Source of the DNA: Candidatus Zhuqueibacterota bacterium
GTDB lineage: Bacteria > BS750m-G25
Direction: 5' to 3'
Assembly: GCA_016783505.1 (NCBI GenBank)
Contig: JADHWK010000011.1
Span: 1 to 60,160 of the forward strand
Length of the DNA: 60,160 bases
Made by a program: the position numbers and the translations under genes. This document shows positions 21,379 through 54,095 of the stretch, in pieces (the stretch's first letter is position 1; each line of letters opens with the position of its first letter). Under the pieces are notes generated by a model, which saw only the letters and a program-made list of their open reading frames with translations, was not told the origin of the DNA and ran no database searches.

Positions 21379-21438
21379 TAAATTGGTTTACCGATTGGAT
21401 TGTTTGAACTAAGATTCAAAAAAGAGGAGTTAGGAACC

Positions 21439-24834: not shown

Positions 24835-24886
24835 TGCCACGCTGAATCATTTTTGGATTTAAACAACTGAATAAGGAGATAATGCC

Positions 24887-26046: not shown

Positions 26047-28401
26047 ATGTTAAGACGTTTCTTTGGCGCCCCAGAGTCGTTACTTTTATGCTTACTTTAT
26101 TCCTCGACTTTCCTCTTTTCCTGTGAGCAACACCCGCCTCCTAAATCCTACTTTCCTGAAACTGGTCGAAATGCACTTTATCAGCGTTCCCTCGACCTGC
26201 GAAGCAATCTTAACGTTCTATCTATAGCGATTCAACCCGGTCATGAGGATCTCTCTGCCTTAGCGTTTTTCCGCCTTGGGCGGGGTGCAACAATTATGAG
26301 TGCCTACCTCACAAACGGGGAAGCTGGTGAGAGCGATGTCCAGGCAGAATATCCTCCGTATCTTGCCGCGATCCGCCGGGAGGAAGCCTCGAAGGCCCTT
26401 TCGTATCTGGGCGGCGGGGTTCATTTTCTTAATATGCCCGACATCGCCGCAGCGAGGGATTCGGCAAGGGTTCGGGAATTGTGGCCAAGCGACGCCCTCC
26501 AGGCGCGTCTGGTCAAACTTTTTTCCCAATTCAAGCCTGATATAGTCATGGTAGCTCGCGATTGGGCGGCTGAGGGGAAAAGCCCGTGGTGGGATGCTCT
26601 GTGTTCCGATGTGTTGGTTGCAGTTAAAAAGATCGTCCCAGCTAAATCGCAAAAAAATTTAGTGGGTACCAAATATCACCGGTTCTGGGGTATTGATCGT
26701 GTTTTTATTGATGATGGGAAAAGAAAAGGTATTTCAATTCCCGTTGACCAGCGTCATCCACGTTGGAAAAAAACCTATCGCGCCATCGGAGGGGAGGCTG
26801 CGCGGTTCTATGGTTCATTAGCGATCCAGCGGCGCCTGTGGATAAACGGCGAGGAACCATCCTACCGTCTTGTCTACCCGACTCCACCGTTATCAATTAG
26901 TGAAATTGATGCGGGGTTACCAGAGGCGAGTACGGCACGGTTACGCTTGATAGAGCAGGAAATCGAACAACTCACTAAGGCTACACTCCAGGGGAAGACT
27001 AAGAATCCATTAAGACGCCTGGTAGCCATCCTGGACTCCGTTAATTTTTACCTTGTACGACGATACACCTTACACGCCCGCGAACAGAAAACGTTGTTGC
27101 ACTGGAAAAGGGGGCTTGAAAACCTTCGCTGCACGTTGCTCGGTGTCGAAGTGGAATATTCAATCAGCGATACGGCTCTTACCGAGCGGCAATTGACTTT
27201 TCTGTCAATTGACACAGTTAAGGGGATAAGTTCTGAAGGGGACACAGATATATATTTTACTGACCTTGATCCAGGATGGGCCATCAATGAAGAACTGGAA
27301 CGAAGACTGCCGCTCAGGCTCCACCAGAAGTACCGTTTGCTCTCACCGTCACGTGTTGACTATACCTTTCCGCCCGGACTACATAAGTTACAATCCCCAA
27401 CCTTTGGAAAGCCATTTAGCTTTTTCATCATTCATCGTGCCCCATCAAAAGAACGAAGCTTTGTACACCGCACCACCATAGAGCTTTCGTTCGCCCCAAG
27501 ATTCGTCCCTGAGATTCTGACGCCCATCGTTCGCATGGTGCCAGGCGAGCGGGTCGTATTTCGACTCACGAATCTCTCGCGGGATGGCGTGGCAGACACC
27601 ATCAGAGTTGAAGATTCACTTGCTTCTTCAACAGAGAGCGCATTTCGCTTGAGCTATAAAGGAAGCTCCCATCTCGATACGCTGTTCATTACCTGGAAGG
27701 GAAATCCAGATGATGGAACCCATTTGATACCGGTACAGATTGACGGAATAACGGTAGCAAATTTCGCGGCAAGAAAGTTCCATACCAAGGTTGATACATC
27801 CAAAAAAATTGGAATTGTCACAGGATTACAGAATAGCCCCACAGAAAATGCCCTTCGCCGCTTGAACGTTAAATTTTCCACTGTCGGGTTAGGTCGAACG
27901 TTTTCACAGCAGATTGATTCATTAGACGTCCTCATTATTGACAGACGGGTACTCTCGTTGAAGCCGCAAATGGGAGATTTTAAGAATGAGATGGACAATT
28001 TCGTCAACCGGGGGGGTCATTTGGTTGTTCTATCGCAAGATGCTGCAACGTGGAACGCTAAACCGCTTTGGGCCGGGATGCACTTAACACCAACGTTACT
28101 ATTCGATGAAAATATCCCACTTGAGTTGGACTCAACGCATACACTTCTCACCTATTCCAATCTCATTTCTCCCGAGGATTGGAACGGATGGCTTTATTTG
28201 CGGGGTTACAACGTTGTCTCAGGTAGCGCCCTAGAAGACGCCCAGCTTCCGGTGAAAGTGAAGCGTGAAGGCGTACCGCTCATTGTTTTCCTGAGAGAGG
28301 GCAAGGGGAAACGGACTTATATTGATTTGGCACTTGGCCACCAGTGGATGAACATTCACCCCGGGGCATTTCGATTACTAGCAAACCTCATTTCATATTG
28401 A
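26047..28401 (+). CDS. PIG-L-like lipoprotein with degenerate metal site
   Basis: A 784-residue protein with a lipoprotein-type N-terminus (hydrophobic run ending LFSC near residue 27). Residues about 50-290 resemble the PIG-L/LmbE N-acetylglucosaminyl deacetylase fold (MSAYLTNGEAGESD, RREEASKALSYLG). The zinc motif normally AHPDDE reads PGHEDL here (His66-Glu67-Asp68), and the second His-x-x-His motif is absent (ARDWAAEGKSPWW). Deacetylase activity is therefore doubtful. The C-terminal half is beta-rich with a late Rossmann-like domain similar to glutamine-amidotransferase folds. Follows the PorV-like gene; role unknown. Confidence 0.72.
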   Translation: MLRRFFGAPESLLLCLLYSSTFLFSCEQHPPPKSYFPETGRNALYQRSLDLRSNLNVLSIAIQPGHEDLSALAFFRLGRGATIMSAYLTNGEAGESDVQAEYPPYLAAIRREEASKALSYLGGGVHFLNMPDIAAARDSARVRELWPSDALQARLVKLFSQFKPDIVMVARDWAAEGKSPWWDALCSDVLVAVKKIVPAKSQKNLVGTKYHRFWGIDRVFIDDGKRKGISIPVDQRHPRWKKTYRAIGGEAARFYGSLAIQRRLWINGEEPSYRLVYPTPPLSISEIDAGLPEASTARLRLIEQEIEQLTKATLQGKTKNPLRRLVAILDSVNFYLVRRYTLHAREQKTLLHWKRGLENLRCTLLGVEVEYSISDTALTERQLTFLSIDTVKGISSEGDTDIYFTDLDPGWAINEELERRLPLRLHQKYRLLSPSRVDYTFPPGLHKLQSPTFGKPFSFFIIHRAPSKERSFVHRTTIELSFAPRFVPEILTPIVRMVPGERVVFRLTNLSRDGVADTIRVEDSLASSTESAFRLSYKGSSHLDTLFITWKGNPDDGTHLIPVQIDGITVANFAARKFHTKVDTSKKIGIVTGLQNSPTENALRRLNVKFSTVGLGRTFSQQIDSLDVLIIDRRVLSLKPQMGDFKNEMDNFVNRGGHLVVLSQDAATWNAKPLWAGMHLTPTLLFDENIPLELDSTHTLLTYSNLISPEDWNGWLYLRGYNVVSGSALEDAQLPVKVKREGVPLIVFLREGKGKRTYIDLALGHQWMNIHPGAFRLLANLISY

Positions 28402-28432
28402 TATATTATAAGTGGTTAGCCATCTGAAGAAA

Positions 28433-28458
28433 GTGCACTAAATTATAATCTAATGCAC
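28433..28458. promoter_or_regulatory. imperfect 26-bp palindrome upstream of the GWxTD gene
   Basis: GTGCA and TGCAC flank an AT-rich centre with TTATAA; 22 of 26 positions are symmetric. It lies about 90 bases ahead of the next gene and could be an operator or a weak hairpin. A second inverted pair, TTAGCCAT (28416) and ATGGCTAA (28499), encloses it. Confidence 0.35.
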
Positions 28459-28546
28459 CCAATCTAGGAAGGATGGCCTATTTTTGCTGATTACTTCACA
28501 TGGCTAAATAATTACGATATATTGAAGAAAAGGAGGGCGATTCACT

Positions 28547-29914
28547 ATGAAGAAACTTTTTTTCTTGGTTGTTCTCATTGCCTTCTCTTGTGCTGAACTA
28601 TTAGCACAGGAGCTCACCCCGACTGGTTCATTTGTACTCAATCTGGATTACGCAAGATTTCGCAACGATGATCAGTCTGGATACTTAGAAATCTATTATG
28701 GGTTTTATCCCCACCTTCTCACCTACCAATGGTCGGAAGGCAAATATAGGGCTGGGGTGCAACTGTGGACTCGACTGCGGAACAACAAGACGAAGGCGCT
28801 TGTGATGAGTGAACGAGCGCTGCTGCCTATGGTGGCAACTGATACGAGCGAGGCTTCGTTCCGTTACCCGTTCATCACCCAAGCCGGCTATGCCCTTCCA
28901 TTGGGCGACTATACCCTTGAAGTGGTCGCCAACGACTCACTCGCCCCGTCGCGTCGTGATAACATCAGCTTGGCGATCAGCGTCAATGCATATCCCAGTG
29001 GGGTGGGGTGCAGCGATTTGGAATTATGCAGCAATATCAAATCTTCCCAACAAAAGGACGATCCCTTCTTCAAAAACTCACTGGAGGTTGTCCCCAACCC
29101 TACATTAGTCTTTGGCATCACCGTTCATCCGGTGGTGTTCAACTACTTGGAGCTGTACAACTTAAACCCCGAAGAAACATACAGGGTGAAAACACTCATA
29201 ATTGACTCTGAAGGGAATATAGCACGAGAGTCATCAAAAACACGTAAATATGGGGTGAGGAATGCGATTGAGGTGGGTACCACAAACGTGACGTCAATCC
29301 TATCAGGGAAATATCGTTTTCGGCATTTGCTTTTTGACCACAGTTCAAGCGAACTAGGTCGAACAGAGAAAACGTTTTTCGTATATAATCCACATCTGCA
29401 AGGCCCTTCGTTAACCGGCCCTTTTTTCCAAATGAGCGAGCTAGCCGGACTGTCAGAAGAGGAACTGACAGCGGAGTTTCGTCAGGCACAGTACATTGCA
29501 ACAGACCGAGAGATCAAGTTGTTCGCACAAGTTGACTCCGAAGCCGGTAAGCGGGAGTTCCTGGCAAAATTCTGGGTTGATGTTGCGAAAGGGCGCTTCG
29601 ACCGTCCACCGATTAAGCGTGCGCAGCATTTGCAACGCGTCGCTGTTGCCAACGAACGGTACCGTTCAATGGGAAAAGAGGGTTGGCAGACAGATCGAGG
29701 CCGCGTCTATGTCCTATACGGGGAACCAGATGAAATCGATCGATTCCCCAGCCTAGGTGAAAGTAAGCCTTACGAGATTTGGCGTTTCCATAGAATCGAG
29801 AGCGGTGTGGAATTCGTATTTGTAGATGATTTTGGATTTGGATTCTATAGATTAGTTCACTCTACTAAGCGCGGCGAGTTGTGGGATGATCAATGGGAAA
29901 GCTATTTGAAATAG
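28547..29914 (+). CDS. GWxTD domain-containing secreted protein
   Basis: A 455-residue protein with a signal peptide (residues 1-21). Near residue 375 the motif GWQTDRGRVYVLYGEPDEI defines the GWxTD family, found in many FCB-group and Acidobacteria genomes. The domain runs to the C-terminus (YEIWRFH, FVFVDDFGFG). The N-terminal half is beta-rich. Function is not established. AGGAGGG stands before the ATG. Confidence 0.87.
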   Translation: MKKLFFLVVLIAFSCAELLAQELTPTGSFVLNLDYARFRNDDQSGYLEIYYGFYPHLLTYQWSEGKYRAGVQLWTRLRNNKTKALVMSERALLPMVATDTSEASFRYPFITQAGYALPLGDYTLEVVANDSLAPSRRDNISLAISVNAYPSGVGCSDLELCSNIKSSQQKDDPFFKNSLEVVPNPTLVFGITVHPVVFNYLELYNLNPEETYRVKTLIIDSEGNIARESSKTRKYGVRNAIEVGTTNVTSILSGKYRFRHLLFDHSSSELGRTEKTFFVYNPHLQGPSLTGPFFQMSELAGLSEEELTAEFRQAQYIATDREIKLFAQVDSEAGKREFLAKFWVDVAKGRFDRPPIKRAQHLQRVAVANERYRSMGKEGWQTDRGRVYVLYGEPDEIDRFPSLGESKPYEIWRFHRIESGVEFVFVDDFGFGFYRLVHSTKRGELWDDQWESYLK

Positions 29915-30084
29915 CAGCCTTATGATTTGTCGGCCGGTGTGTATGAAGTATAAATATTAGATCATGGAGGTGAATGGTCACACAATACCACCTTCGAGAA
30001 GAATGGCTGTTCCAAGGGGTCCCGGCTAGTCTATTATGTTGGTTTCGTCTCCTCACTATTATTTTCATTGATTAAGAAAAAGAG

Positions 30085-32354
30085 ATGGCAGCTCAAAGAA
30101 TCAAAATTCTGTTGCTCGCTTTTTTAGTTTGTGCCTACGCTGCTATGGCCTATGCCCAGGAAGTCACAATTACCGGATTCGTGCGCGATATGAATACCTA
30201 CCGAGAAATTGGCAATGTAAACATTTATATCAAAGGTACACAAATTGGTACCAGTAGCGACTTTGCGGGAAGATATTTGCTTCGAGTGCCTGTTACTACC
30301 GGACAAATGGTGGTAGTTTTCCGACACATTGCTTACGAGCCACGGGAGATTCCACTCGAATCGCTCTCGGAGATGCGGCAGGTTTATCTGCAGCCGCGTG
30401 TGATTCCATTAAGGGGCGTTACAATTGAGGAGAAAAGATACCAATCAATAGAGATAGAAAAGGATTTGCCCCAAACTGTTTCCATGGTTGAAGCACGGAA
30501 TTTTGAAATTCGGGGGTACGTTGATGCTGGCGACTTGCTTAGAATAGATCACAGTGTTCAGGTGGATGAAGAACTGAGCGGTAAAAAAACGGCCTCTATT
30601 CGCGGTGGCAACCCGGACGAAGTCTTGGTGTTGTATAACGGTATCAAAATGAACAACCCGTATGACAATACCTTTGATCTGTCACTGATTGATTTGGAGG
30701 ATATTGAAAGGTTTGAGATCATCAAGGGCAGCAATACGGCGCTCTACGGCCCTGAAGCATTTTCCGGTATAATCAACATCGTCCCCAAGGTGCAGCACGA
30801 TTACAATATTAGATTTCAGCAGCGGCTTGGCACCTATCGTTCCGGAAACTGGGGACTACACCTCTATCACAAGCTTAACCGTCTGCACGGATCTTGCAGT
30901 TTAAAACGCGGTGGTGCCAAAAGGAATTTTGTTGACGTGGCCGATGACAAAGGACGGCTGGAAAACACCTCCCTGCATCATACCGCCAACCTCACCTACA
31001 TTTTTTCGGATCATTCCGATGGGCGGCCGGCAAATTCTCTGGGCGCCATGTATATCTACTCGTCCATGAGGTATGACAACCAGCGTGACGTCGAGAGCTT
31101 GTCGAATCTAAACGAATTGCTGTCGTTTCAATACACCGGGGATATTGCCAGATTAAAAGACCTCGATGTGTCCGTATCGCAAGGTTGGAGGAGGAACAGT
31201 TTCTGGCCAGCGGCACTGGTGCACTCCACCGGTGTATAGAGGATCGGGCCATTTATATCAATACAAAGAAGGGTCTGAAATTCGGCCTGGTGGACTTATT
31301 ATTAGCGTATCAGTTTCAACACGCCGAGCTCGATTTCAGCGACGAACGAAGAAATCTCCAGGAGCAACCTGTTGGTTTGGAGTCCGCCCAATTTAAGCGG
31401 CAACACCATGGTCTGGTGTCCATTGCCAAATTAAATGAAGACATCGGCTCGGGGTTTCTTAAGACAATTGAGGTGAGTGGCAGTTTGCGTCGTGATTGGG
31501 TGCAGGATGAGCAAGCCAATCCAATACTACGTAGCGAGCCGCCGGAAGGCGAGCAAGGAAGTACCGTGGGCGTTTTCAACGAAAATAAGTGGCAAGAGAA
31601 TATGATTAAGTTTGCTCTGAGCCTATCTGGGGATCGGAAGGATCTCACATTTAACGGCTATTTAAGCTTTGGTATGAATACCAAATTTCCGACCCTGTTT
31701 CAGCAGATCAGCTCACCGATTTTGCTAACGGAGGCCGCCTCCCGTCCAAATCTTAGTCCGGAAAAAAACCGCAGCTCGGAATTGAGCGTTGTCGTAACCA
31801 GGGACATTCGCGGGAAAGGAAGCATCTACGGCTGGCAAATTTCCGGGAATTTTTTCCAGAACTACTACGACAATAAATTTCGCGTTTCAGCCATACCGGG
31901 CGTTCCGGTGGCCTTTTATGATAACGTTCCAAATGCACGAATTTCTGGAGTTGAAACCAAGTCAAGCGTTTTCTTCTTCCGCAAGAAGGTGACTGTGGAA
32001 TTGGGTATGTCCCGCTACTTTATCTCGGAAAAAGCCGCCTTTCCCTTTAAGTCCGACTTCAAACGAACGCTGAACTTCATCGTTGACCATGCTGGCTATT
32101 CATTTCAGATTCACTGGTTCAAAGAAGGGGAGCAGGCGGGATGGCTACGCCAGCAAAATGGCCACTTTGCGGAGATAACTCTTCCTGACTATTCAAACCT
32201 TGATTTACATCTGAGTAAGGCATTCCAGATGGGCAAACTAAAGCTATTTGCAAACGCCAGCGGTCGTAACTTGTTGTATGATGATGAGGTAGTCTTACAG
32301 GGTCTGGCCATCCGCGATCGCCGGTTCTACCTCACCGTGGGTGCGCAGTACTGA
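30085..32354 (+). pseudogene. TonB-dependent receptor, frameshifted
   Basis: The first 384 codons encode a signal peptide (to YAQE), a carboxypeptidase-regulatory-like domain (GFVRDMNTYREIGNVN), and a complete plug (SIRGGNPDEVLVLYNGIKMN, GSNTALYGPEAFSGIINIVP). The frame ends at 31239. The barrel continues in another frame from about 31185 to 32354, ending GAQY. The switch lies in or close to GGAGGAGGAACAG around 31185-31200. About 750 residues in total, shorter than the other two receptors. Either a recent frameshift or a sequencing error; the rest of the coding sequence looks well preserved. Confidence 0.82.
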
Positions 32355-32396
32355 GACAACCGTTTTCAATGATTAAAACTCAGAGGGTAAACGTGC

Positions 32397-33266
32397 ATGA
32401 AAACAGGGCGATGCATTGAGAAGGTTTTGTTCGGAGGGTTGTGTCTTTCAATTCTTTGGGGCTGTACCGAGAATCCCTTTACCTTCAGTGAGGAAGATAT
32501 CTCCTATGGGTCTCGCCAAATTCGCGGTAAGGTTATACTCAGTGACGGATCGAGCCCCGAGGGAGTTTATGTCTGGCTTGAGGGTTTTAATATCGATATG
32601 CGCACCGATGAGGCCGGCCAGTTCCAAGTGACTTTGCCACCACCAGCGAGTCAGGGAACGCCAGGGGGCGTGAGCGGCGTGTTTGACCTCTATTTCTATC
32701 TCGCCAACTATCACCTTACCTCCTCCCGGGTGATCGTTCGAAATGGCACATTTTCTTACGGTCAAGGAGACATTGATAAAAACGGCGAACTGATGGGGCC
32801 AATAATCTTGACGAAGTTTCTTCACATCAGTACCCAAGTGACACCCGCCTTTATTGATACAGATTTTGATGGCTCGGTATACGTAAAGATCACGTTGCAA
32901 GCCACTACTGACACAGTCACAGTGGTTTTCCCCAGGTTGGCCCAAGACCTAGTAGGCAGTGTGTTTTTGAGAAAACTAGATTCAGACGAAGTCTTTATTT
33001 TAACAACCAATAGTGTCGGCTATATAACGAATAGTGCAGAACTCATCGGACGGTCGCCATACAACCGGACAATGGTATTTGCCTTTCGTTCTGGAGCTTA
33101 CCCACCAGGAGACTATGAGGTTATTCCATACCTGTTGGTCAAACATGAAGTCATTCCGCAAGGACTGATTGAGAGTTTTGGTGAGAACGTCGAGGAACTT
33201 GGGCCAAATTATCTTAAAATCCCATTCCAGCGCCAGGGAGGACGGTTTGAGATCAGAAACTATTAA
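32397..33266 (+). CDS. lipoprotein with carboxypeptidase-regulatory-like domain
   Basis: A 289-residue protein with a lipoprotein signal (ILWGC, Cys near residue 23). Residues about 40-130 resemble a carboxypeptidase-regulatory-like beta sandwich (IRGKVILSDGSSPEGVYVWL). The C-terminal end, ESFGENVEELGPNYLKIPF, is closely similar to a relic at 48071-48169. Placed directly after the frameshifted receptor, it is probably its surface or periplasmic partner. No enzyme motif. Start ATG 32397. Confidence 0.75.
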   Translation: MKTGRCIEKVLFGGLCLSILWGCTENPFTFSEEDISYGSRQIRGKVILSDGSSPEGVYVWLEGFNIDMRTDEAGQFQVTLPPPASQGTPGGVSGVFDLYFYLANYHLTSSRVIVRNGTFSYGQGDIDKNGELMGPIILTKFLHISTQVTPAFIDTDFDGSVYVKITLQATTDTVTVVFPRLAQDLVGSVFLRKLDSDEVFILTTNSVGYITNSAELIGRSPYNRTMVFAFRSGAYPPGDYEVIPYLLVKHEVIPQGLIESFGENVEELGPNYLKIPFQRQGGRFEIRNY

Positions 33267-33536
33267 GATACAATTTGAAGTAAACTCTTGTGTCGTTTAA
33301 CCGATGCGCTTAACAAAACGAAGGTAAGTGGTTGCATAGGGTCTTACCATTGGTGTGTATAACATCAGGCGTTTGCAAGGCTTACAAATAGATTTATTGA
33401 ACTATGCCCGGAATAACCTTATGGCCTTCAAAGTATTACCTTTTTTCAATATTCACAATGATAAAATCCCGAAATTTTCACCTCAAAACAATATTACTGT
33501 ATTAGTATGTATCTGACCTTATATGATGGAGGTAGT
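33267..33536. other. 270-bp non-coding gap
   Basis: No gene, strong hairpin or clear promoter seen. The ribosome site GGAGGT at 33528-33533 belongs to the next gene. Confidence 0.5.
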
Positions 33537-34523
33537 ATGAGCGGGAAAAATCTTTGTATGACGATCGTGTTATTCCTGGCTGCAAACATTCAAGCCCAGG
33601 AAGGGTTTTTGCGGCCCGTGCATACATATTCCATTGTGGCTCGGGATTCTGTGACAGGTGAAATGGGCGTTGCCGTCCAGTCGCACTGGTTTTCTGTGGG
33701 GAGTGTGGTTACCTGGGCTGAGGCGGGTGTTGGTGCCGTGGCAACTCAATCCTTTGTGGAGGTTTCGTATGGACCTTTGGGACTTGAATTGATGAAAGCT
33801 GGTAAGACGGCACTGGAGGCATTGTCCGCTTTGCTGAAAGCCGATCCAAACCCCAACGTGCGACAGGTGGCGATGGTTGACAAACACGGCAATGTGGCTG
33901 TGCACACCGGGGCCAATTGTATTGAAGCTGCGGGGCACCATCTGGGGAAGCAGTATACCACACAGGCTAATCTGATGGAAAAGGATACTGTCTGGGATGC
34001 CATGGCAAAAGCGTACGAAACGACTTCTGGTGACCTCATTAATAGATTAATGGCTTCGTTAGAGGCTGCAGAGCAAGAGGGTGGGGATATCCGCGGAATG
34101 CAGTCGGCGGCTATTTTGGTCGTGCCAGGAACATCGCAAGGAGCCCCGTGGCGAGAAAAAGTTATTGAACTGCGCGTCGAGGATCATCCCCGGCCGCTTG
34201 AAGAATTAAAACGTTTGATCCGCGTTCACCGAGCTTACGAACACATGAACAAGGGAGACGAACTGCTCGCCGAAAACGATATGGAAGGCGCATTGATGGA
34301 ATATTCTAAAGCAAGTGAGCTGTGTCCTGAGAACGTGGAGATTATTTACTGGCAGGCTGTTACCATGGTAGGGGCTGGAGATGTAGAGAAAGCGCTGCCG
34401 CTATTCCGAAAGGTGTTTGAGAAAGATCCAAATTGGGTGGAACTAACTCGGCGTCTGCCAGCATCAGGATTGCTGCCTGATGATCCGGACCTTGTGCAAA
34501 AAATCATTTCAGTGGCACGGTGA
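33537..34523 (+). CDS. DUF1028 family protein with C-terminal TPR-like region
   Basis: A 328-residue protein with a signal peptide (to ANIQAQE). Residues about 25-220 match DUF1028, related to the Ntn-hydrolase fold, with HTYSIVARDSVTGEMGVAVQ and the conserved GVGAVATQSFVEVSYGPLGL. The last 100 residues look like TPR helices (LAENDMEGALMEYSKASELC). Family members are commonly found near peptidases; an amidohydrolase role is suspected but not shown. ATG 33537 has GGAGGT five bases ahead; an ATG at 33507 is less likely. Followed 16 bases later by a CocE-type hydrolase. Confidence 0.88.
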   Translation: MSGKNLCMTIVLFLAANIQAQEGFLRPVHTYSIVARDSVTGEMGVAVQSHWFSVGSVVTWAEAGVGAVATQSFVEVSYGPLGLELMKAGKTALEALSALLKADPNPNVRQVAMVDKHGNVAVHTGANCIEAAGHHLGKQYTTQANLMEKDTVWDAMAKAYETTSGDLINRLMASLEAAEQEGGDIRGMQSAAILVVPGTSQGAPWREKVIELRVEDHPRPLEELKRLIRVHRAYEHMNKGDELLAENDMEGALMEYSKASELCPENVEIIYWQAVTMVGAGDVEKALPLFRKVFEKDPNWVELTRRLPASGLLPDDPDLVQKIISVAR

Positions 34524-34539
34524 GAAGGAGGAAACGGTC

Positions 34540-36417: not shown

Positions 36418-36495
36418 CACCTAATCAATGCCTATTATCTGTAGGATGGTAAGCTGTTCCATTCATACGGATAGTAGATTTTTAGGAGAAAGATA

Positions 36496-39000: not shown

Positions 39001-39074
39001 ACTAAAATTAATCTTGATGTTAAGATGCAATCTATTCATTATTCAATAGTACATAACTGAATTTGGAGGAAAAA

Positions 39075-40616
39075 ATGATCAAACTATTGCAAAAAACCAC
39101 GGGAGCGGGTCTGCTTCTTCTTTTCCTACTGTTGATTGTTGTCCCAACGTACGCTCAGGAGGACCATCTCAACGATCTGAATGACTATGTCGAAAAAGCC
39201 ATGCGGGATTGGAAGGTTCCTGGGGTAGCAATTTCGATTGTTAAGGATGATTCTGTTGTTTTTGCAAAAGGTTATGGGATTAGGGAACTCGGCAAGGAGG
39301 CGAAAGTGGATGAATATACACTCTTTTCCGTCGCCTCGAATACAAAGGCATTTACTGCTGCACTGCTCGGCATGCTTGTGGATGAAAGTAAACTCAATTG
39401 GGATGATCGGGTAACCGATTACTTAAGAGAATTCCAGATGTATGATCCTTATGTCACGCGCGAGATCAATATTCGCGACCTGCTCACACACCGCAGCGGA
39501 CTGCCAACCTTCGGGGGTGATCATTTATGGATCGGTAACTCTCTAAGTCGAGATGAAATAATAGCCCGTATTCGTCATCTGAAGCCGAGTGCGCAATTTC
39601 GCACCAAATTTCAATATCAGAATCTTATGTTTCTGGTAGCGGGACAGGTTATTCCGGAAATTACAGGCAAGAGCTGGGAGGTGACCATTAAGGAGCGGAT
39701 ACTCATACCCTTAGGCATGATGGAAAGTAACACGAGCATTCGAGATCTGAAGGGCAAGATAAATGTTGCCACCCCACATGAGATAGTTGGGGGTAAATTA
39801 GTACCAATCGAATATGATAATGTTGATAATACCGCTCCTGCAGGTGCGATTAACTCAAACGTGGTGGAAATGGCTCGGTGGATGCGACTCAATCTAAACG
39901 GCGGCGTTTACAATGGCAAACAGATTCTTAGTGCCGAAGTCATGCGAGAAATGCATACCATTCAAATGCCAATCCCAATATCAGCAGATAGAGAGAAGAT
40001 GCTGGGGACGCATTTCTTGGGATACGGCTTAGGCTGGGGAATTTCAGACTACAGAGGACGTAAATTGGTGAGCCACGGCGGTGGGCTTTCAGGTATGATT
40101 TCCCTTCAGACATTGATCCCTGAGGAAAATCTCGGTGTGATCATTCTCACCAACTTTGCCCCCCACTCATTGACCAGAGCATTGACCTATAAAGTAATAG
40201 ACGCCTTTCTCGGGGAACCGGAGCGGGATTGGAGTGCCGAATACTTAGAGCGCAGAAAAGAATCAAAAGAAAAACAGAAAAAAGCTGAAAAAGAATTGCA
40301 AACAAAGCGGGTTAAAAGAACCAAACCATCACTTAAGTTAAAAAATTACAGCGGTATATATTCTGACGAGTTATCAGGCGAGGCAGAGGTCAGACTTGAG
40401 AACCGTAAACTTGTCTTTAATTACAATCCAAGGCATATTGGTGATTTAGAACACTGGCATTACGATACATTTCGTGTTACTTGGCGTAATCCTATTTACG
40501 ATATGCCTGAAAGGACCTTTCTTACATTTTATTTGGATGAAATGGGGAAGGTGGCTAAATTAAAAGTTACATTTTATGATCCCATCTATTTTAAAAAGGT
40601 CCCCAGGTCTGAATAA
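39075..40616 (+). CDS. serine beta-lactamase-like hydrolase (class C type)
   Basis: A 513-residue exported protein of the penicillin-binding-protein/beta-lactamase fold. Motifs: Ser88-x-x-Lys91 (ASNTK), Tyr181-x-Asn183 (YQN), and HGGG near residue 334 in place of KTG. The HxG third motif is usual for esterases and D-aminopeptidases of this fold rather than true beta-lactamases. The C-terminal 100 residues are a DUF3471-like lipocalin-type domain (YSGIYSDELSGEAEVRL). In this context hydrolysis of D-residue peptides is possible. GGAGG precedes ATG 39075. Confidence 0.9.
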   Translation: MIKLLQKTTGAGLLLLFLLLIVVPTYAQEDHLNDLNDYVEKAMRDWKVPGVAISIVKDDSVVFAKGYGIRELGKEAKVDEYTLFSVASNTKAFTAALLGMLVDESKLNWDDRVTDYLREFQMYDPYVTREINIRDLLTHRSGLPTFGGDHLWIGNSLSRDEIIARIRHLKPSAQFRTKFQYQNLMFLVAGQVIPEITGKSWEVTIKERILIPLGMMESNTSIRDLKGKINVATPHEIVGGKLVPIEYDNVDNTAPAGAINSNVVEMARWMRLNLNGGVYNGKQILSAEVMREMHTIQMPIPISADREKMLGTHFLGYGLGWGISDYRGRKLVSHGGGLSGMISLQTLIPEENLGVIILTNFAPHSLTRALTYKVIDAFLGEPERDWSAEYLERRKESKEKQKKAEKELQTKRVKRTKPSLKLKNYSGIYSDELSGEAEVRLENRKLVFNYNPRHIGDLEHWHYDTFRVTWRNPIYDMPERTFLTFYLDEMGKVAKLKVTFYDPIYFKKVPRSE

Positions 40617-40683
40617 ATATTAGGCTTGAAGTTTGTTATTGAAACTCTGTAAAGCTCATAATATTGAGCTAAAGGCGTTTAGT

Positions 40684-41451
40684 ATGAAAAAGATTCTCAT
40701 AATGTTTTTTATCCTTATGGTTTTTAAGTCACAATTATGGGCACAGCATTATATTACGCTTGGTTTGGGATTTAGTGGAGCGTTTTTTGATTCCGAAGAT
40801 CTGGATCGTTTTAAGGAGACATATAATTCAGTGAATAGCCCATATCTTGCGAACTATATGCGTGGGATCGGAGGGGCCATGGGTTTACGGTGGGAAATCG
40901 GTTATCGGTATATTGGTCGTTTAGGTACTGCCGTTTTAATTGGCATGCAAAATTATAAAAGTAATGATGCAGCCCAATATCAGAATGGTGAAGTGAGAAA
41001 TTTAGAACTAAAAATGAACAGCATGTATGTCGAATCTGAAATAGGGCATACCCGTAAGAACTTCTTTGTGAATGGTGTTTTAACATTATTTTTCGATCGA
41101 AAATTGACCCTTAAGAGTAAATATTCAGGACCAACAAGCGAAGCGGTAAAAAATCCTTTGAATGGAACTTACAATAGCGATACATCAATTTCAACAGATA
41201 TGGGGATTGCTATAGGGATTATTAAAGAACCGATTATTCTCACCGGTAAAATAACCTATCCCCTATTTACTGGGGGTGGATCCAATATTTTACAAGATAA
41301 ACGAGTCGAAAAAATTGAAAATGGGACAGATATTTTTCCAAATGATTATGAGGATTATTGCTTTGATAAGACCTACGATGGGGTCGCAAGCGATATTGAT
41401 GGATTGAAGATTTTGGTGACAATTGCCTTGGTGATTCCGTTAAAGAAGTAA
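40684..41451 (+). CDS. hypothetical outer-membrane beta-barrel protein
   Basis: A 255-residue protein with a signal peptide (to LWAQ) and alternating beta strands typical of a small eight-to-ten-strand barrel (ITLGLGFSGAFF, MGLRWEIGYRYIGRLG). It ends LVTIALVIPLKK without a terminal aromatic residue. No family recognised. ATG 40684 is preferred because the signal peptide starts there; ribosome site weak. Lies between the beta-lactamase-like hydrolase and the ureohydrolase. Confidence 0.65.
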   Translation: MKKILIMFFILMVFKSQLWAQHYITLGLGFSGAFFDSEDLDRFKETYNSVNSPYLANYMRGIGGAMGLRWEIGYRYIGRLGTAVLIGMQNYKSNDAAQYQNGEVRNLELKMNSMYVESEIGHTRKNFFVNGVLTLFFDRKLTLKSKYSGPTSEAVKNPLNGTYNSDTSISTDMGIAIGIIKEPIILTGKITYPLFTGGGSNILQDKRVEKIENGTDIFPNDYEDYCFDKTYDGVASDIDGLKILVTIALVIPLKK

Positions 41452-41646
41452 TTGTGGAACCCAAATCCATAGTTGAGCTCTTACCCATTTTATCTAAATC
41501 TTGAGTAGATCAACTGGGAAGGATATCAAGAAGGAGAGAGGTGATAATGTAGATAATATGATCTGGTTTGACAAATACCATTACGATATTTCCGATAAAG
41601 ATTGAGGAAATTACATTATTCAAATTGTAAGAGAGGAGATTTTGAA

Positions 41647-42612
41647 TTGCTCAATCAGAAACCGAAAAACCAAGATCTTAATTGGCCCATGACTTTACCC
41701 CGCTATATGGAGATTCCAACCTTTATGCGGACCCCGCTGATCAAAGATCCAACCGAGTTTGACATCGCAATGATCGGGATACCCTATGATGGAGCGGTTA
41801 CAAACCGACCGGGGGCGCGGCATGGTCCGCGTGAGATCCGCAACTCATCCAGCATGATGCGGGCGATTCACCATGTAACCCGGGTAAATCCTTATGAACT
41901 TTGCCGGATTGGCGATGCAGGTGATGTGCCTTTTACCAGGGTTTATAATGTAGAAGAAACTCATCATGACATTACCCGCTTTTTTGCCCAATTTTACCAG
42001 GCTGGGATTTTGCCGCTATCAGCGGGGGGCGATCATTCAGTCACTCTGCCGATTCTTCGAGCACTTGCTGAAGACGCTCCGATCGGTATGGTCCATATTG
42101 ATGCACATACGGATACCTGGGATGAACTTATGGGCTGTAAATTCAGCCATGGTGCACCGTTCCGTCGGGCAGTGGAGGAAAACCTGCTAGATCCAAAGCG
42201 CACAGTGCAAATTGGCATTCGCGGCGCCCAGAATACGAGCGAGGGCTGGGATTACTCCATTGACAGTGGTATGCGAGTCATTTTTATGGAGGAATTTACG
42301 AAGCTCGGCGTAGATGCGGTAGTCGCTGAAACGCGCCGGTTCGTGGGTAATGGGCCGACCTATATTTCCTTCGACATTGACAGTCTGGACCCGGTTTATG
42401 CTCCCGGCACTGGAACCCCGGAGATCGGTGGCCTCACCACGATCGAGGCCCAAGCCCTGCTACGGGGTCTTCGCAGGCTGAACCTGATCGGGGCCGATGT
42501 GGTGGAAGTCTCACCACCATTTGATCCAAGCGGGAACACCGCACTGGTCGGTGCCACTATCATGTATGAAATTCTGTGCCTGCTGGCAGAAACAGTTGCA
42601 GCGCGCTCCTGA
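41647..42612 (+). CDS. agmatinase/arginase-family ureohydrolase
   Basis: A manganese-dependent hydrolase of about 321 residues. The metal ligands are visible in GGDHSV, HIDAHTD and SFDIDSLDP. The pattern GIPYDGAVTNRPGARHGPR resembles agmatinases and guanidinobutyrase-type enzymes. It would split a guanidino group to urea. The start is taken as TTG 41647, eight bases after GAGAGGAG; an upstream TTG (41602) has no comparable ribosome site. No signal peptide, so cytoplasmic. Placement beside the symporter suggests it acts on an imported guanidino compound. Confidence 0.9.
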   Translation: MLNQKPKNQDLNWPMTLPRYMEIPTFMRTPLIKDPTEFDIAMIGIPYDGAVTNRPGARHGPREIRNSSSMMRAIHHVTRVNPYELCRIGDAGDVPFTRVYNVEETHHDITRFFAQFYQAGILPLSAGGDHSVTLPILRALAEDAPIGMVHIDAHTDTWDELMGCKFSHGAPFRRAVEENLLDPKRTVQIGIRGAQNTSEGWDYSIDSGMRVIFMEEFTKLGVDAVVAETRRFVGNGPTYISFDIDSLDPVYAPGTGTPEIGGLTTIEAQALLRGLRRLNLIGADVVEVSPPFDPSGNTALVGATIMYEILCLLAETVAARS

Positions 42613-42676
42613 TTGCGACTTGCCTTGCACAAATTTCTAACCCGTGGCCACTTGACCTCTTTAAGGAGGTATACAA

Positions 42677-42946
42677 ATGAAATTTGTTGAAGATCCAAGA
42701 ATAAGGGAAGGCCGTAAGACCCTTGCCCTGGCCTGGCTCTATTTTTTCATCTATCTTATCGTCATTATGGGTTCGTCATATTTTTTAGGGATAAAACCCT
42801 ACTTATGGGGATTACCTCGCTGGGTGGCAATTGGTAACATAGTGGTCCCCATCGTATTTGTAATAATGCTAATATTTGTGGTGGAAAAATTCATACCTGA
42901 TATCCCCCTGACAGATGACGAAGAAGAATCGGAGGAAAAAGAATGA
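42677..42946 (+). CDS. YhdT/DUF997-type small subunit of a sodium:solute symporter
   Basis: An 89-residue protein with two membrane segments and the family pattern EDPRIREGRKTL, GLPRWVAIGNIVVP and a closing FIPDIPL. Such small proteins precede PanF-like sodium symporters. Its ATGA overlap with the next gene (four bases) signals stoichiometric coupling. AAGGAGGT precedes the ATG. Confidence 0.85.
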   Translation: MKFVEDPRIREGRKTLALAWLYFFIYLIVIMGSSYFLGIKPYLWGLPRWVAIGNIVVPIVFVIMLIFVVEKFIPDIPLTDDEEESEEKE

Positions 42947-44427
42947 ATGCGGCAATAGTTACCTTCTTGGCTTATACAGCAATATTGATTGCAATTGGAA
43001 TATGGTCATATCGGATTGTAGAAAAAGTACCCATCGCAAAATACGAAAAGGAATTCTATGCAGCAGGCAGAGGGCTGGGGGGAATTGTGGTGGCCTTAAT
43101 CATTGCCGGAGGGCTTGCCAGCGCGGGAACCTTTATCGCCGGTCCTGGAATGACCTATGCTTATGGCTATTCCTGGGTGCTTTTCAATAACTTCCAGATT
43201 TTTATGAACCTTGCATTATTGGCTCCAATAGGTATAATAGTCGGAATTGTAGCACGGCGAGTGAATGCTGTAACCTACCTGGACATATTCAAAGCCAGAT
43301 ATCAAAGCAAGGCTATTATAATATTACTTGCAGTTTTAGTGACAATATTTTTAATACCATATATGTCGGTCCAGTTTGTAGGTTCGGCCAGGGTTATTGC
43401 TCAAATGACAGATATGGGATTTTTTCCGTCTCTTGCTCTCGGATCTCTGGTCGTATTGGTTTATTGTGTATTGGGTGGTATGCGTGGGACATCTCTAGCG
43501 ATTCTTATACAAGGCATTGTCATAACCGTTGGATGCATATTGCTGTTTATAGGCACAGTAAATTATGCAGGGGGATTCAAAAGGTCTACTGAGATCCTTG
43601 CCGCCCAGGACATTAACTTTCTTTCACCAACTATGGGCGGTGCATTTTCCCCAGCGTTTGCTTTTTCAATTGCTTGCATCACAGGTCTTTTTGTAGTTGG
43701 CATGCCGCATGCAATGCTCGGTGCTCTTACATACAAAAATACAAGAGCGCTTAAAAGAGGCATCTGGATGGGAGGGATATTGGTTTTAATATGGACACTT
43801 CTTTTGTGTATGGCAGGAGTAATAGGCCGTTCAATAAAACCTGATCTTGCAGTACCGGATGAAATTGCTCCTTGGTTAGCAATGCATGTGATGCCGGAAG
43901 CTCTGGGAGGAGTTGTCCTCGCAGGTATTGTGGCAGGAATCCAGACGACTGTTGCGGCAATGGCCATAATCATAACCTCAAGTATAGCAAAAAATCTTCT
44001 CAGAGAACTCAAACCAGATATATCAAGCGAAAAAATTAAATCAGCCTCAAGATGGACTATGGGGGGCTGCCTGGCAATCGCGATAGCATTAGCCCTGCTG
44101 CAGCCCCCATTAATTCAGTGGATCATCTTCTTTTCAATCGGGGGACTGCAAACTGCTACATTTGGACCGATCCTTTTGGGTATGTTTTGGAAAAGAGGAA
44201 ATCAGTGGGGAACGATCGCATCCATTACCTGGGGAATGATCACCTATGCGCTTGCCAAAACAATCGTTCCACAAATTGCCCTATGGGGGACGTTTGAATC
44301 TTTTGTTCCCACAATTACTTCTGTTATCGTTTACGTTGTGGTCAGCCTGGCTACACCTAATCCATCTGATAAAATCATATGGACATTTTGGGGACCAGCC
44401 ATGAGAACGTTAAAAAGCAACTATTAG
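42943..44427 (+). CDS. sodium:solute symporter (SSS family)
   Basis: A 494-residue membrane transporter with about 13 segments. Typical SSS features are the early GRGLGGIVVALIIAGGLASA (sodium-site helix 1) and the Ser-rich helix IIITSSIAKN. It couples sodium entry to uptake of a small organic solute. Pantothenate, proline and sugar carriers are in the same family, so the substrate cannot be named. Cotranscribed with its small subunit, the ureohydrolase upstream and the epimerase downstream. Confidence 0.92.
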   Translation: MNAAIVTFLAYTAILIAIGIWSYRIVEKVPIAKYEKEFYAAGRGLGGIVVALIIAGGLASAGTFIAGPGMTYAYGYSWVLFNNFQIFMNLALLAPIGIIVGIVARRVNAVTYLDIFKARYQSKAIIILLAVLVTIFLIPYMSVQFVGSARVIAQMTDMGFFPSLALGSLVVLVYCVLGGMRGTSLAILIQGIVITVGCILLFIGTVNYAGGFKRSTEILAAQDINFLSPTMGGAFSPAFAFSIACITGLFVVGMPHAMLGALTYKNTRALKRGIWMGGILVLIWTLLLCMAGVIGRSIKPDLAVPDEIAPWLAMHVMPEALGGVVLAGIVAGIQTTVAAMAIIITSSIAKNLLRELKPDISSEKIKSASRWTMGGCLAIAIALALLQPPLIQWIIFFSIGGLQTATFGPILLGMFWKRGNQWGTIASITWGMITYALAKTIVPQIALWGTFESFVPTITSVIVYVVVSLATPNPSDKIIWTFWGPAMRTLKSNY

Positions 44428-44533
44428 ATCTACACTATATATATTTTTTATAGAGAAGGGCTTTTGCTTTTTCAAACAAAAAAATTAATGGGTTTATCTA
44501 AGGATTAGAAAATTTTAAAAAGGAGAAAGAAAC

Positions 44534-45646
44534 GTGAAGGAAAAATTAAAAATCACCAGTGTTGATATCTATAAAGCTGATATCGAATTCAAAGAGCCGT
44601 TCAGGATAGCAATCATGGAAATCCTCAGCGCCCAGAGTGTCTTTATAAAAATCAATACAAATGAGGATTTATATGGGCTTGGCGAAGCAAATCCCACCTG
44701 GGGGATCACAGGTGAGACGCAATCTATCAATCTTGCCGGAGCCGTTGACCTTGCCAGGTTATTGCTCAATAAGGATCCCCTAAATATTGAAGGGCGGATG
44801 AGAGAAATTGACAGATTTTTAATCCACAACAGCACACTGCGGAGTGCTTTCGATATGGCATTGTATGACCTTCTGGGCAAGGTTGCCGAACTTCCGTTGT
44901 ATGCTGTTCTTGGAGGAGGAAAGCGTTCCTTCTGGACGGATAACACAATAGGAATCGCCGATCCTGATTACATGGCTAAAAAAGCCCTTGATTACAAGAA
45001 TCAAGGGTTCCAGGCTATAAAAGTTAAACTCGGGACCACCACAGATCAGGACATCGAAAGAATCAAAAAGATCAGAAAAGCCATAGGAGATGATCTGCCA
45101 ATCCGGATTGATGCTAACCAGGGTTGGGATTATAAAACTGCTGTAGTTACTCTCCAAGGTCTGGAATCAATGGGAATTGAGTATTGCGAGCAGCCCATTG
45201 CTTGTTGGGACTATGAGAATATGCGGCGGATCAGACAGAATACTTCGATTGCGATCATGGCTGATGAGTCCTTGTTTGACCATCATGACGCGTTTAAACT
45301 TGCATCCATGGGGTGCTGCGACTATTTTAATATTAAATTGGCAAAGTCTGGAGGCATCCATACCGCTCTGAAGATCAATGCGATAGCTGAAAGTGCCGGT
45401 ATTCGCTGCATGGTAGGTTGCATGACTGAGACACGGCTGGGTTTGACAGCGGCGGCGCATGTGGTTTCCGCGCGGCCCAATATTCAATATGCGGACCTCG
45501 ATGGTTATTTAATGTTGAAAGAAGACCCAGTCATCGGCGGTGCCCATTACAATGTCGGAGAAATTAATCTACCCGACACTCCCGGTCACGGTGCAGATAT
45601 AGATCCTGATTTCCTGAAACATTGTGAATCTACGACGGTCAAGTAG
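44534..45646 (+). CDS. dipeptide epimerase (enolase superfamily)
   Basis: A 370-residue muconate-lactonising/mandelate-racemase-type enzyme. Visible active-site residues: the Lys pair in IKVKLG, metal ligands Asp (RIDANQGW), Glu (CEQP) and Asp (MADES), and the opposite Lys in NIKLAKSGG. A late DLDG in YADLDGYL is the Asp-x-Asp motif that binds the dipeptide amino group in L-Ala-D/L-Glu-type epimerases. It should interconvert L,D and L,L dipeptides. AAAAGGAG precedes the GTG/ATG region. Strong clue that the locus handles dipeptides, including D-residues. Confidence 0.92.
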   Translation: MKEKLKITSVDIYKADIEFKEPFRIAIMEILSAQSVFIKINTNEDLYGLGEANPTWGITGETQSINLAGAVDLARLLLNKDPLNIEGRMREIDRFLIHNSTLRSAFDMALYDLLGKVAELPLYAVLGGGKRSFWTDNTIGIADPDYMAKKALDYKNQGFQAIKVKLGTTTDQDIERIKKIRKAIGDDLPIRIDANQGWDYKTAVVTLQGLESMGIEYCEQPIACWDYENMRRIRQNTSIAIMADESLFDHHDAFKLASMGCCDYFNIKLAKSGGIHTALKINAIAESAGIRCMVGCMTETRLGLTAAAHVVSARPNIQYADLDGYLMLKEDPVIGGAHYNVGEINLPDTPGHGADIDPDFLKHCESTTVK

Positions 45647-45715
45647 CAGCAATAGTGATGTGTTTCAATATGAGAAAAACAAGTTTACAGAATACCAAAA
45701 AAGGAGGGTTATGTT

Positions 45716-46522
45716 ATGAAGGGAATGAACAATCTATTGAAAAAATGGCCGGTACTTATCTTCGTCGGTCTTGCATTTGCAGCCTGTAGGCAAGCTCAAG
45801 ATTTCAAGGCGGGATTACTGGATATGACGTATCCCTTTGATGAAAACACCATTTACTGGCCAACTGCAAAACCCTTTAAGTTACAGAAGGGTGCCTGGGG
45901 AATCACTGAGAAAGGCTATTGGTACGCTTCTAACGAATATAGTGCCGCAGAACACGGAGGAACCCATGTAGACGCACCTATTCATTTTGCCCAGAATGGG
46001 CGGACTATTGACCAAATTCCCCTGGATGAATGGATCGGGCCCGCAGTCAAGATAGATGTTACCGAAAAATGCGAAAGAAATCGGGATTACCTCCTTAGTG
46101 TCGATGATATTAGAGACTGGGAGAAGAAATATGGCAGAATTCCTGATCATGCCTGGGTAATCATGTACACTGGTATAGATACTAAATATTACCCTGATAA
46201 AGAAAAAGTCCTGGGAACGGACAGAACAGGCGAAGCAGCAATTCCTGAGTTGAGTTTCCCAGGTTTTTCACCTGAATCAGTTGAGTTTTTGATAAGAGAG
46301 AGAAACATCACGGGAATAGCCCTTGACACTCCTAGTATAGATTACGGAAAATCAAAGGACTTTAAAGTTCACCAAACTCTCTTTGCCGCTGATAAACTTG
46401 CTTTGGAAAATATAGCCAATTTAGATAAGCTTCCATCTTCTGGATCGATGCTTTATGTAATGCCGATGCTCATCAAAGATGGAACAGGTGCGCCAGCTCG
46501 AGTTTTCGCGATGCTTCCTTAA
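45716..46522 (+). CDS. cyclase/kynurenine-formamidase-family lipoprotein
   Basis: A 268-residue protein of the metal-dependent cyclase family. The metal motif HGGTHVDAPIHF is present near residue 82. The N-terminus is a lipoprotein signal (LAFAAC, Cys near 24), so it is likely held on the outer face of a membrane. Relatives hydrolyse N-formylkynurenine or similar amides; the substrate here is unknown. AAGGAGG precedes the ATG. Confidence 0.87.
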   Translation: MKGMNNLLKKWPVLIFVGLAFAACRQAQDFKAGLLDMTYPFDENTIYWPTAKPFKLQKGAWGITEKGYWYASNEYSAAEHGGTHVDAPIHFAQNGRTIDQIPLDEWIGPAVKIDVTEKCERNRDYLLSVDDIRDWEKKYGRIPDHAWVIMYTGIDTKYYPDKEKVLGTDRTGEAAIPELSFPGFSPESVEFLIRERNITGIALDTPSIDYGKSKDFKVHQTLFAADKLALENIANLDKLPSSGSMLYVMPMLIKDGTGAPARVFAMLP

Positions 46523-46635
46523 GTTTTTATAAAATACCACCAAACACATTAAAAACACGAAAAGGAGACAGTCCCTTAATCACTTAAAAATTGAGTTTTG
46601 TAAAACTTTTTTCAAAAAAATACATGGAGGACAAA

Positions 46636-48034
46636 ATGCGCAGAAGAATTTTAAAAATCTTACTCGTTGCCTTTTTCATCGGCAATTTGTCTCTTGCGAC
46701 AGCGCAGAACTTGACCGGAAGAGAAAAACAATGGCTGGCAAAAGCTTATCGAAATGATAAGAATGGCTGGATATTCTTGCATATTGAAGGAGGACCTTTT
46801 GAAAGAGGGTTCCAGCGTGGTTACTTGACTGCTAACGAAATTGATGAGTTCTTAAAAACAGTAGCTTATTTAGAAAAATTTGAGACTGCCAAAGAAATTG
46901 ATTTTTTTGTTAAAGCTGCTAATATACTTTTCAAGAATAAAGTCTCTAAAGAATATATTGAAGAGATGAAAGGGACGGTGGCGGGGATGGAAAAAGCGGG
47001 GAGAAAAGTAACTTTTGAGGAAATGCTTTTTATGAATGGATTTATTGATGTGCTCTGGCACTGGTGGCCTCAGGAGAAGGATAAAATTAAAATGCCTGGC
47101 CCTGGTTGTAGTGCTTTTATTGCCACCGGAGAGGTGACTTCCGATGGCAAAATAGTAATGGCTCATAATTCATGGTATTTCTATTCTTAGATTTTGTAAT
47201 ATTATTGTGGACATCGTTCCAGACAAGGGACACCGAATCCTGATGCAATCCTGGGGACCTTGTTTATATAGCGCCACTGATTTTTTCATCACTGGGGCAG
47301 GGTTAATTGGTACAGAAACTACAATTGGAGGTTTTAGCGGATTCGATCCAGAGGGGATACCTGTTTTTGAAAGAGCCAGGAAAGCAATGCAATATGCCAA
47401 TAGCATTGATGAATGGGTTAAAATAATGATTGAAAACAATAATGGGGCCTATGCCAATTCCTGGCTATTGGGAGATATTAGAACTAATGAGATTGCCCGG
47501 CTTGAGCTTGGTTTGAAACATCACAGTATAGAGAAAAAGAAGGATGGGTATTTTACGGGTTCAAATATTGTGGATAATATAGAAATTTTAAGAGAGGAGA
47601 CCGATGCGACTTATGATGATGTAAGAAATTTTTCTGTAGCTCGCAGGGTGCGTTGGAAACAGTTAATGAAAAAGTATTATGGGAAAATTGATGTGGAAAT
47701 TGCCAGAAGAATGCTGGCTGACCATTATGATGTCTATTTAGAAAAAGAAATACCAAGCTCCAGAACAATATGCGGTCACTGGGAATTAGATAATGGAAGT
47801 GTTCCGGGAAGTCTAGGTGCTTATCTACCAGGCGGAGCCATCGATGGAAAAGTCGTTAGCTCAAATATGGCAAAGAATTGGAAGATCTGGGCAAAATGGG
47901 GAAGCTCTTGCGACATTGGTTTCGATGCTAAAAAGTTTTTAGAAAAACACCCACAGTATGAATGGCTGCAAGGATATTTAAAAGATCTACCTGCCAAACC
48001 TTGGACTATATTCCCTTTTAACGAAAGTAAATAA
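46636..48034 (+). pseudogene. C45/phospholipase-B-like Ntn hydrolase, frameshifted
   Basis: The 5' part (46636-47190) has a signal peptide (to ATAQ), the family pattern GWIFLHIEGGPFERGFQRGY, and the expected nucleophile Cys158 in GPGCSAFIATG; it stops at 47190. The rest (to 48034) continues in another frame, beginning about NIIVDIVPDKGHRILMQSWG and ending with intact family features. The switch is close to the TTCTATTCTTAG tract at 47178-47190 and fits one inserted base. Either a new frameshift or a sequencing error. Family members are amidases or acyltransferases. Confidence 0.8.
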
Positions 48035-51629: not shown

Positions 51630-51713
51630 CGTTCCATTAAATCGTTTTTCAGATTGAATTCTTAGTCAAGCCATTTATTTGATTAGCCATAGGTTAGGTA
51701 GGGAGATAACATC

Positions 51714-54071: not shown

Positions 54072-54095
54072 GTCAAGATAATCGGGGAGGATATT

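What the first reader, a model, noticed from the sequence alone, without database searches (positions are those of the whole stretch)
26047..48034. Putative peptide-utilisation locus including a dipeptide epimerase
Between the modules lie a CocE/X-Pro-type hydrolase, an M1 aminopeptidase, a beta-lactamase-fold hydrolase with HxG motif, a DUF1028 protein, a C45-type hydrolase, a formamidase-type lipoprotein, an arginase-family enzyme, a sodium symporter with small subunit and a dipeptide epimerase. All are on one strand. The set fits uptake and breakdown of peptides that contain proline, D-residues or blocked ends, perhaps cell-wall peptides. Analogous to polysaccharide utilisation loci but for peptides.
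Basis: inference. Interest (0 to 1): 0.65.

Follow-up and report, generated by a model that had tools for sequence, protein, structure and literature searches.

The report
Dipeptide-salvage module with unusual sodium symporter
Inside a loose run of secreted hydrolase genes lies a small gene set, shared by several little-known bacterial phyla, that pairs a dipeptide epimerase with a sodium symporter and its small partner, hinting that a transporter family not known to carry peptides may import peptide fragments containing D-amino acids.

Summary
The listed genes are present, all on the + strand (as is nearly every gene in the window). Corrections: the 'X-Pro' enzyme most resembles alpha-amino-acid ester hydrolases; the 'C45' hydrolase and an unlisted TonB receptor are each one gene broken by a frameshift; the 'arginase' is closest to guanidino-acid hydrolases. 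The 22-kb set is not a conserved unit: in 11 genomes with close epimerases, the ester hydrolase, M1, DUF1028, cyclase and guanidino hydrolase are absent or mostly elsewhere.

A core is conserved: DUF997, SSF symporter, dipeptide epimerase, usually with an S12 or Ntn hydrolase nearby. Ten SSF orthologs were found, the window's included. The epimerase is adjacent in eight, two of them found by an independent SSF-seeded search. In a ninth, the SSF lies beside D-aminopeptidase (M55) and dipeptidase (M19) genes. The epimerase keeps all dipeptide-epimerase residues but lacks the Arg24 of L-Ala-D/L-Glu enzymes.

Best reading: exported hydrolases make short peptides, the symporter imports them, and the epimerase turns a C-terminal D residue to L for cytosolic peptidases. 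This is a variant of the murein-peptide operons with an SSF replacing the ABC importer. Substrate and transport are inferred, not shown.

The parts
42677..42946 (+). DUF997 small membrane protein (YhdT-like); stop overlaps the SSF start by 4 bases (ATGA). Core of the module
   Evidence: Pfam PF06196 39.7 bits, cut-off 26.3; the same overlap in all eight SSF starts checked
42943..44427 (+). SSF-family sodium:solute symporter, PanF-like; predicted importer. Core of the module
   Evidence: Pfam SSF 162 bits; PanF model 307.6 bits, below its cut-off of 328.05; orthologs 64-81% identical over full length
44534..45646 (+). Dipeptide epimerase, enolase superfamily, MLE subgroup. Core of the module
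   Evidence: PDB 3jva 281 bits, 3q45 277, 1jpm 255; K163/K165, D193, E219, D244, K268 and DxD D321/D323 present
39075..40616 (+). Exported S12 beta-lactamase-fold hydrolase with DUF3471 (candidate D-aminopeptidase-like or peptide hydrolase); recurrent partner
   Evidence: Pfam; homologues 17 within four genes of epimerases against 1 further out; next to the module in L016, L023, L032, L110 and L105
46636..48034 (+). C45-type Ntn hydrolase with signal peptide, one gene broken by a frameshift near 47183-47190
   Evidence: NCBIfam C45; intact 500-aa homologue 52% identical in L099; a C45 gene also lies directly upstream of DUF997-SSF-epimerase in L015
34540..36417 (+). Exported S15 hydrolase of alpha-amino-acid ester hydrolase type; association with the module is loose
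   Evidence: PDB 1mpx/2b4k 420 bits; orthologs not near the epimerase in five genomes; a distant S15 gene follows the epimerase in L109
36496..39000 (+). Exported M1 aminopeptidase with C-terminal HEAT repeats; neighbour, not a conserved partner
   Evidence: Pfam; homologues elsewhere
33537..34523 (+). Exported DUF1028 protein with TPR; neighbour, not a conserved partner
   Evidence: Pfam 236.9 bits; orthologs dispersed
40684..41451 (+). Unknown exported protein, barrel-like by eye
   Evidence: no Pfam or NCBIfam match
41602..42612 (+). Guanidino-acid hydrolase of the arginase/agmatinase family, cytosolic; not found in other copies of the module
   Evidence: PDB 3-guanidinopropionase 409 bits, guanidinobutyrase 300; no ortholog above 41% in 11 genomes
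45716..46522 (+). PF04199 cyclase-family lipoprotein, isatin-hydrolase-like; neighbour
   Evidence: Pfam, PDB; orthologs 74-78% in two genomes, not next to the module
26047..28401 (+). PIG-L-domain lipoprotein; part of a separate neighbourhood
   Evidence: Pfam; ortholog only in the JdFR-76 genome
28547..29914 (+). GWxTD-domain protein
   Evidence: Pfam and NCBIfam
30085..32354 (+). TonB-dependent receptor split over two frames
   Evidence: Plug in the first frame, barrel in the second

Best explanation
The interval is a neighbourhood of exported hydrolases in which one conserved module is embedded: DUF997, SSF symporter, dipeptide epimerase, usually with an S12 and/or Ntn hydrolase. Exported hydrolases release short peptides or de-blocked dipeptides. 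The DUF997/SSF pair imports a dipeptide (or a similar amide) with sodium. The cytosolic epimerase inverts the C-terminal residue, so that dipeptides with a D residue become L,L and can be cut by ordinary dipeptidases. Shown here: gene identities, the epimerase's catalytic residues and conserved linkage. Inferred: the transported substrate, the direction of flow, the epimerase's substrate, and co-expression.
For: All catalytic and DxD residues of dipeptide epimerases are present, and the best PDB matches are three characterised dipeptide epimerases. DUF997-SSF-epimerase recurs in L015, L016, L023, L032 and, cut by a contig end, L028. An SSF-seeded search of 297 genomes found three orthologs; two have the epimerase next door (L109, L110) and the third sits between a class-IV aminotransferase and M55 D-aminopeptidase/M19 dipeptidase genes. 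S12 homologues cluster near epimerases: 17 within four genes against 1 beyond (p about 5e-4; 0.019 without the Cytophagales). C45 (L015) and C69 (L023) hydrolases lie upstream of the module. Predicted locations fit: the hydrolases have signal peptides, the epimerase none.
Against: No SSF protein is known to me to carry peptides, and no paper found says so. The SSF is close to PanF, so pantothenate is a live alternative. In most epimerase genomes examined beyond this set the SSF ortholog is absent. Many related epimerases sit beside a BioF/Kbl-like enzyme instead. The C45 gene is broken in this assembly.
Confidence: 0.55

Rival explanations
1. One reading: the whole 26-48 kb run is one dedicated peptide-utilisation locus.
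For: Same strand, short gaps, several peptidases with export signals, lower GC3 than the flanking TonB-receptor modules.
Against: Orthologs of most members are dispersed or absent in genomes with the epimerase; the cyclase sits beside 5'-nucleotidase genes in two places; strand is uninformative here.
Confidence: 0.15
2. A murein-recycling locus: the epimerase acts on L-Ala-D/L-Glu.
For: The best-known epimerases of this group do this; Bacteroidales relatives lie near S66 and S13 cell-wall peptidases.
Against: YkfB Arg24 is Met28 in the window and no Arg occurs at this place in the relatives aligned; a Glu follows it in all 17 members of its clade. Both Ala-Glu epimerase models are far below cut-off (219/500 and 112/343). 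No S66, NlpC/P60 or Opp/Dpp gene was found in the window proteins scanned.
Confidence: 0.17
3. The SSF/DUF997 pair is a pantothenate (PanF/YhdT-type) importer that merely lies next to the epimerase.
For: PanF model 307.6 bits, just below the cut-off of 328.05; DUF997 is the YhdT partner.
Against: Adjacency to the epimerase in 8 of 10 orthologs and to peptidases in the others is not expected of a vitamin importer.
Confidence: 0.13
4. A guanidino-compound or beta-alanine pathway: the SSF brings in a guanidino acid for the arginase-family enzyme, as in Pseudomonas gpu genes (recalled from memory).
For: Closest solved enzyme is 3-guanidinopropionase; SSF and DUF997 follow directly.
Against: The guanidino hydrolase is missing from every other copy of the module; the specificity residue matches neither GpuA nor GbuA.
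Confidence: 0.05

Closest known systems
Murein-peptide operons with a dipeptide epimerase (B. subtilis ykfABCD, E. coli ycjG region)
   Same: A dipeptide epimerase of the MLE subgroup beside peptidase genes and an importer
   Different: SSF/DUF997 instead of an ABC importer; S12 and Ntn hydrolases instead of S66 and NlpC/P60; Arg24 not conserved
Dipeptide epimerases 3JVA (Enterococcus faecalis) and 3Q45 (Cytophaga hutchinsonii)
   Same: Closest solved relatives; all catalytic and DxD residues shared
   Different: The window enzyme is in a clade with Met/Ile/Ala-Glu in the 20s loop where these have Gly-Thr/Ile
PanF/YhdT pantothenate symporter
   Same: SSF with a DUF997 partner directly upstream
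   Different: Below the PanF cut-off; peptide-gene context
Alpha-amino-acid ester hydrolases (1MPX, 2B4K)
   Same: Full-length match, catalytic Ser, Asp, His and the acidic cluster in the alignment
   Different: Substrate of the window protein unknown

Membership tests
Dipeptide epimerase (enolase superfamily, MLE subgroup) | KxK and second Lys bases, Asp/Glu/Asp metal ligands, DxD that binds the dipeptide amino end | tested here: met
   motif table; base residues per PMC5808125
Dipeptide epimerase (enolase superfamily, MLE subgroup) | epimerase activity on dipeptides | not testable with these tools
   needs an enzyme assay
L-Ala-D/L-Glu epimerase | Arg24 of YkfB (its role in Glu binding is recalled, not tested) | tested here: not met
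   Met28 in the window
L-Ala-D/L-Glu epimerase | NCBIfam equivalog cut-offs | tested here: not met
   219 of 500 and 112.2 of 343 bits
Murein-peptide operon (ykf/dpp type) | S66 carboxypeptidase, NlpC/P60 endopeptidase, ABC peptide importer beside the epimerase | tested here: not met
   30 window proteins scanned, none match
Polysaccharide-utilisation-type locus (SusC/SusD) | SusC-type receptor with SusD lipoprotein | tested here: not met
   SusC model 56 of 368 bits; no SusD match
PanF pantothenate symporter | NCBIfam panF cut-off | tested here: not met
   307.6 of 328.05 bits
PanF pantothenate symporter | DUF997 (YhdT) partner gene upstream | tested here: met
   39.7 bits, cut-off 26.3
Alpha-amino-acid ester hydrolase | Catalytic Ser/Asp/His and acidic cluster | tested here: met
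   GISYRG, WFDSED, GDDFHHNG and GPWSHG align with 1MPX
C45 autoproteolytic hydrolase | NCBIfam cut-off and nucleophile Cys | tested here: inconclusive
   the two frames score 67 and 66 of 85 bits because of the frameshift; a GCS motif is present
3-guanidinopropionase | Tyr157 of GpuA (its role is recalled) | tested here: not met
   Leu at the aligned place

The most novel reading that the evidence does not exclude
The DUF997/SSF pair is a sodium-coupled importer of dipeptides, including ones with D residues: a peptide transporter in a family known for amino acids, sugars and vitamins, working with a dipeptide epimerase of a new specificity class.
Probability: 0.3. Interest if true: 0.65.

Novelty: new variant of a known kind. 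Interest (0 to 1): 0.4.

Why it matters
Bacterial peptide uptake is usually put down to ABC importers and proton-coupled POT/OPT carriers. A linked SSF symporter and dipeptide epimerase would add a route for salvaging D-residue peptides, a stable part of old organic matter, in uncultured lineages such as Aminicenantes and Latescibacterota. It gives a two- or three-gene set that can be tested in E. coli.

Tried and rejected
A search of 59 relatives of G000 gave only genomes of the same domain, with no informative neighbour. Relatives of G068 held no SSF ortholog at 1e-100; that search also missed G068's own truncated copy, so it shows little. Pfam tallies of genes next to the epimerase against distant genes showed only a modest excess of peptidases, the main signal being the BioF-like enzyme; the S12 clustering was therefore tested by homology instead. 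The promoter and terminator scan was at shuffle level. No solved structure matches the SSF by sequence. Paper searches for an SSF peptide transporter or a DUF1611 link found nothing useful. One hit (PMC4159871) reports sodium solute symporters near cyclodipeptide synthase genes, thought there to export. A first guess that the common neighbour was DUF1611 was wrong: it is a BioF/Kbl-like PLP enzyme.

Full report
What is there. The window is one whole contig (G000:C44) of a genome of 2.5 Mb in 89 contigs, about 60% complete. Two genes are broken: the C45-type hydrolase (frames 46636-47190 and 47207-48034, frameshift near 47183-47190, intact 500-aa homologue 52% identical in L099) and the TonB receptor at 30085-32354. 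Whether these are assembly errors or decay cannot be told here.

Identity of the enzymes. The S15 protein is of the alpha-amino-acid ester hydrolase type (420-439 bits, against about 190 for cocaine esterase), with the catalytic residues and acidic cluster aligned. The arginase-family enzyme is closest to 3-guanidinopropionase (409 bits; guanidinobutyrase 300, agmatinase 202), but the residue recalled as deciding specificity is Leu, neither Tyr nor Met. The cyclase-family lipoprotein is isatin-hydrolase-like. The M1 protein is only distantly related to solved aminopeptidases.

The epimerase. Its best solved relatives are dipeptide epimerases (3jva 281 bits, 3q45 277, 1jpm 255). The bases K165 and K268, metal ligands D193, E219 and D244, and DxD (D321, D323) are all present (mechanism in PMC5808125). 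Arg24 of the B. subtilis L-Ala-D/L-Glu enzyme is Met28 here. A tree puts the window enzyme in a clade of 17 (support 0.90) in which the next residue is always Glu. The substrate is therefore probably not L-Ala-D/L-Glu, but it is not known. The role of Arg24 is from memory.

Is the 22 kb one locus? Eleven genomes carrying close epimerases were searched with the other genes. The ester hydrolase has orthologs of 48-63% in five genomes, none near the epimerase. DUF1028 orthologs of 51-73% are dispersed. M1 homologues lie elsewhere. Cyclase orthologs occur in two genomes, not next to the module, and in one of them beside 5'-nucleotidase genes twice. The guanidino hydrolase has no ortholog above 41%. 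PIG-L occurs only in G068. So the interval is not a conserved unit. In G063 the ester hydrolase and DUF1028 are about 4 kb apart, and in G068 a PIG-L end, GWxTD and C45 share one 4.5-kb contig, so looser linkages exist.

The conserved core. Among 80 epimerase relatives (51-82% identity), DUF997-SSF-epimerase in the window's order recurs in L015 (Latescibacterota), L016 (unnamed bacterium), L023 (Aminicenantes) and L032 (Thermoanaerobaculales), and SSF-epimerase at a contig edge in L028 (Deferribacteres JdFR-76). As an independent test, 297 genomes of the Aminicenantes-side group were searched with the SSF alone: three orthologs, two with the epimerase adjacent (L109, L110) and one, L104, between a class-IV aminotransferase and M55 D-aminopeptidase, aspartyl-protease-like and M19 dipeptidase genes. 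In L105 the SSF is followed by an S12 hydrolase, with the epimerase about 19 kb away on the same contig. In all eight SSF starts checked, DUF997 and SSF overlap by ATGA. S12 hydrolases cluster near epimerases beyond chance (17 against 1, p about 5e-4; 0.019 without the Cytophagales). Species sampling is uneven, so these p-values are guides only.

Mechanism. Exported hydrolases (S12, C45/C69, sometimes S15) cut or de-block peptides; the SSF/DUF997 pair imports the product with sodium; the epimerase inverts the C-terminal residue so that ordinary dipeptidases can act. Linkage, signal peptides and catalytic residues are shown. Transport and substrate are inferred. The chief rival for the SSF is pantothenate import: it scores just under the PanF cut-off.

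Comparison. Epimerase-containing peptide operons are known (ykf in Bacillus, ycjG in E. coli; PMC5808125), with S66 and NlpC/P60 peptidases and ABC importers. None of those partners was found among the window proteins scanned. This is a variant of a known kind, with a possibly new transporter function; no paper found describes an SSF peptide importer.

Verdict. Interest is moderate.

Noticed in passing
L014:1366-2508 and 30 other loci: A BioF/Kbl-like PLP enzyme below all NCBIfam cut-offs lies next to the dipeptide epimerase in 31 of 80 loci (30 near, 0 far; p about 3e-8). Its role with a dipeptide epimerase is not known to me; it is absent from the window interval.
   Followed up: partly
L014, L020, L024: Epimerase, BioF-like enzyme and a DUF819 membrane protein in a row in three genomes; DUF819 may be another importer.
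   Followed up: no
18256-25942 and 48513-59432: Two modules of TonB receptor, large unknown protein and PorV-like protein (31%, short C-terminal match 36%, 28% alike), the second with a type IX sorted protein, flank the interval.
   Followed up: partly
47183-47190 and about 31180-31240: Two frameshifts in otherwise well-conserved genes within 16 kb.
   Followed up: partly
L104:5037-11873: SSF/DUF997 in a row with class-IV aminotransferase, M55 D-aminopeptidase, aspartyl-protease-like and M19 dipeptidase genes.
   Followed up: yes
L099: PIG-L end, GWxTD and an intact C45 gene on one contig of JdFR-76, matching three window genes that are 18 kb apart here.
   Followed up: partly
L106 and L108: Cyclase-family lipoproteins 75-78% identical to the window's lie near similar 5'-nucleotidase-like genes twice in one genome.
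   Followed up: no
L080, L082, L093 and other Bacteroidales loci: Epimerase, BioF-like enzyme, NhaC-type antiporter and S66 LD-carboxypeptidase, with a second diverged epimerase on the other strand.
   Followed up: no
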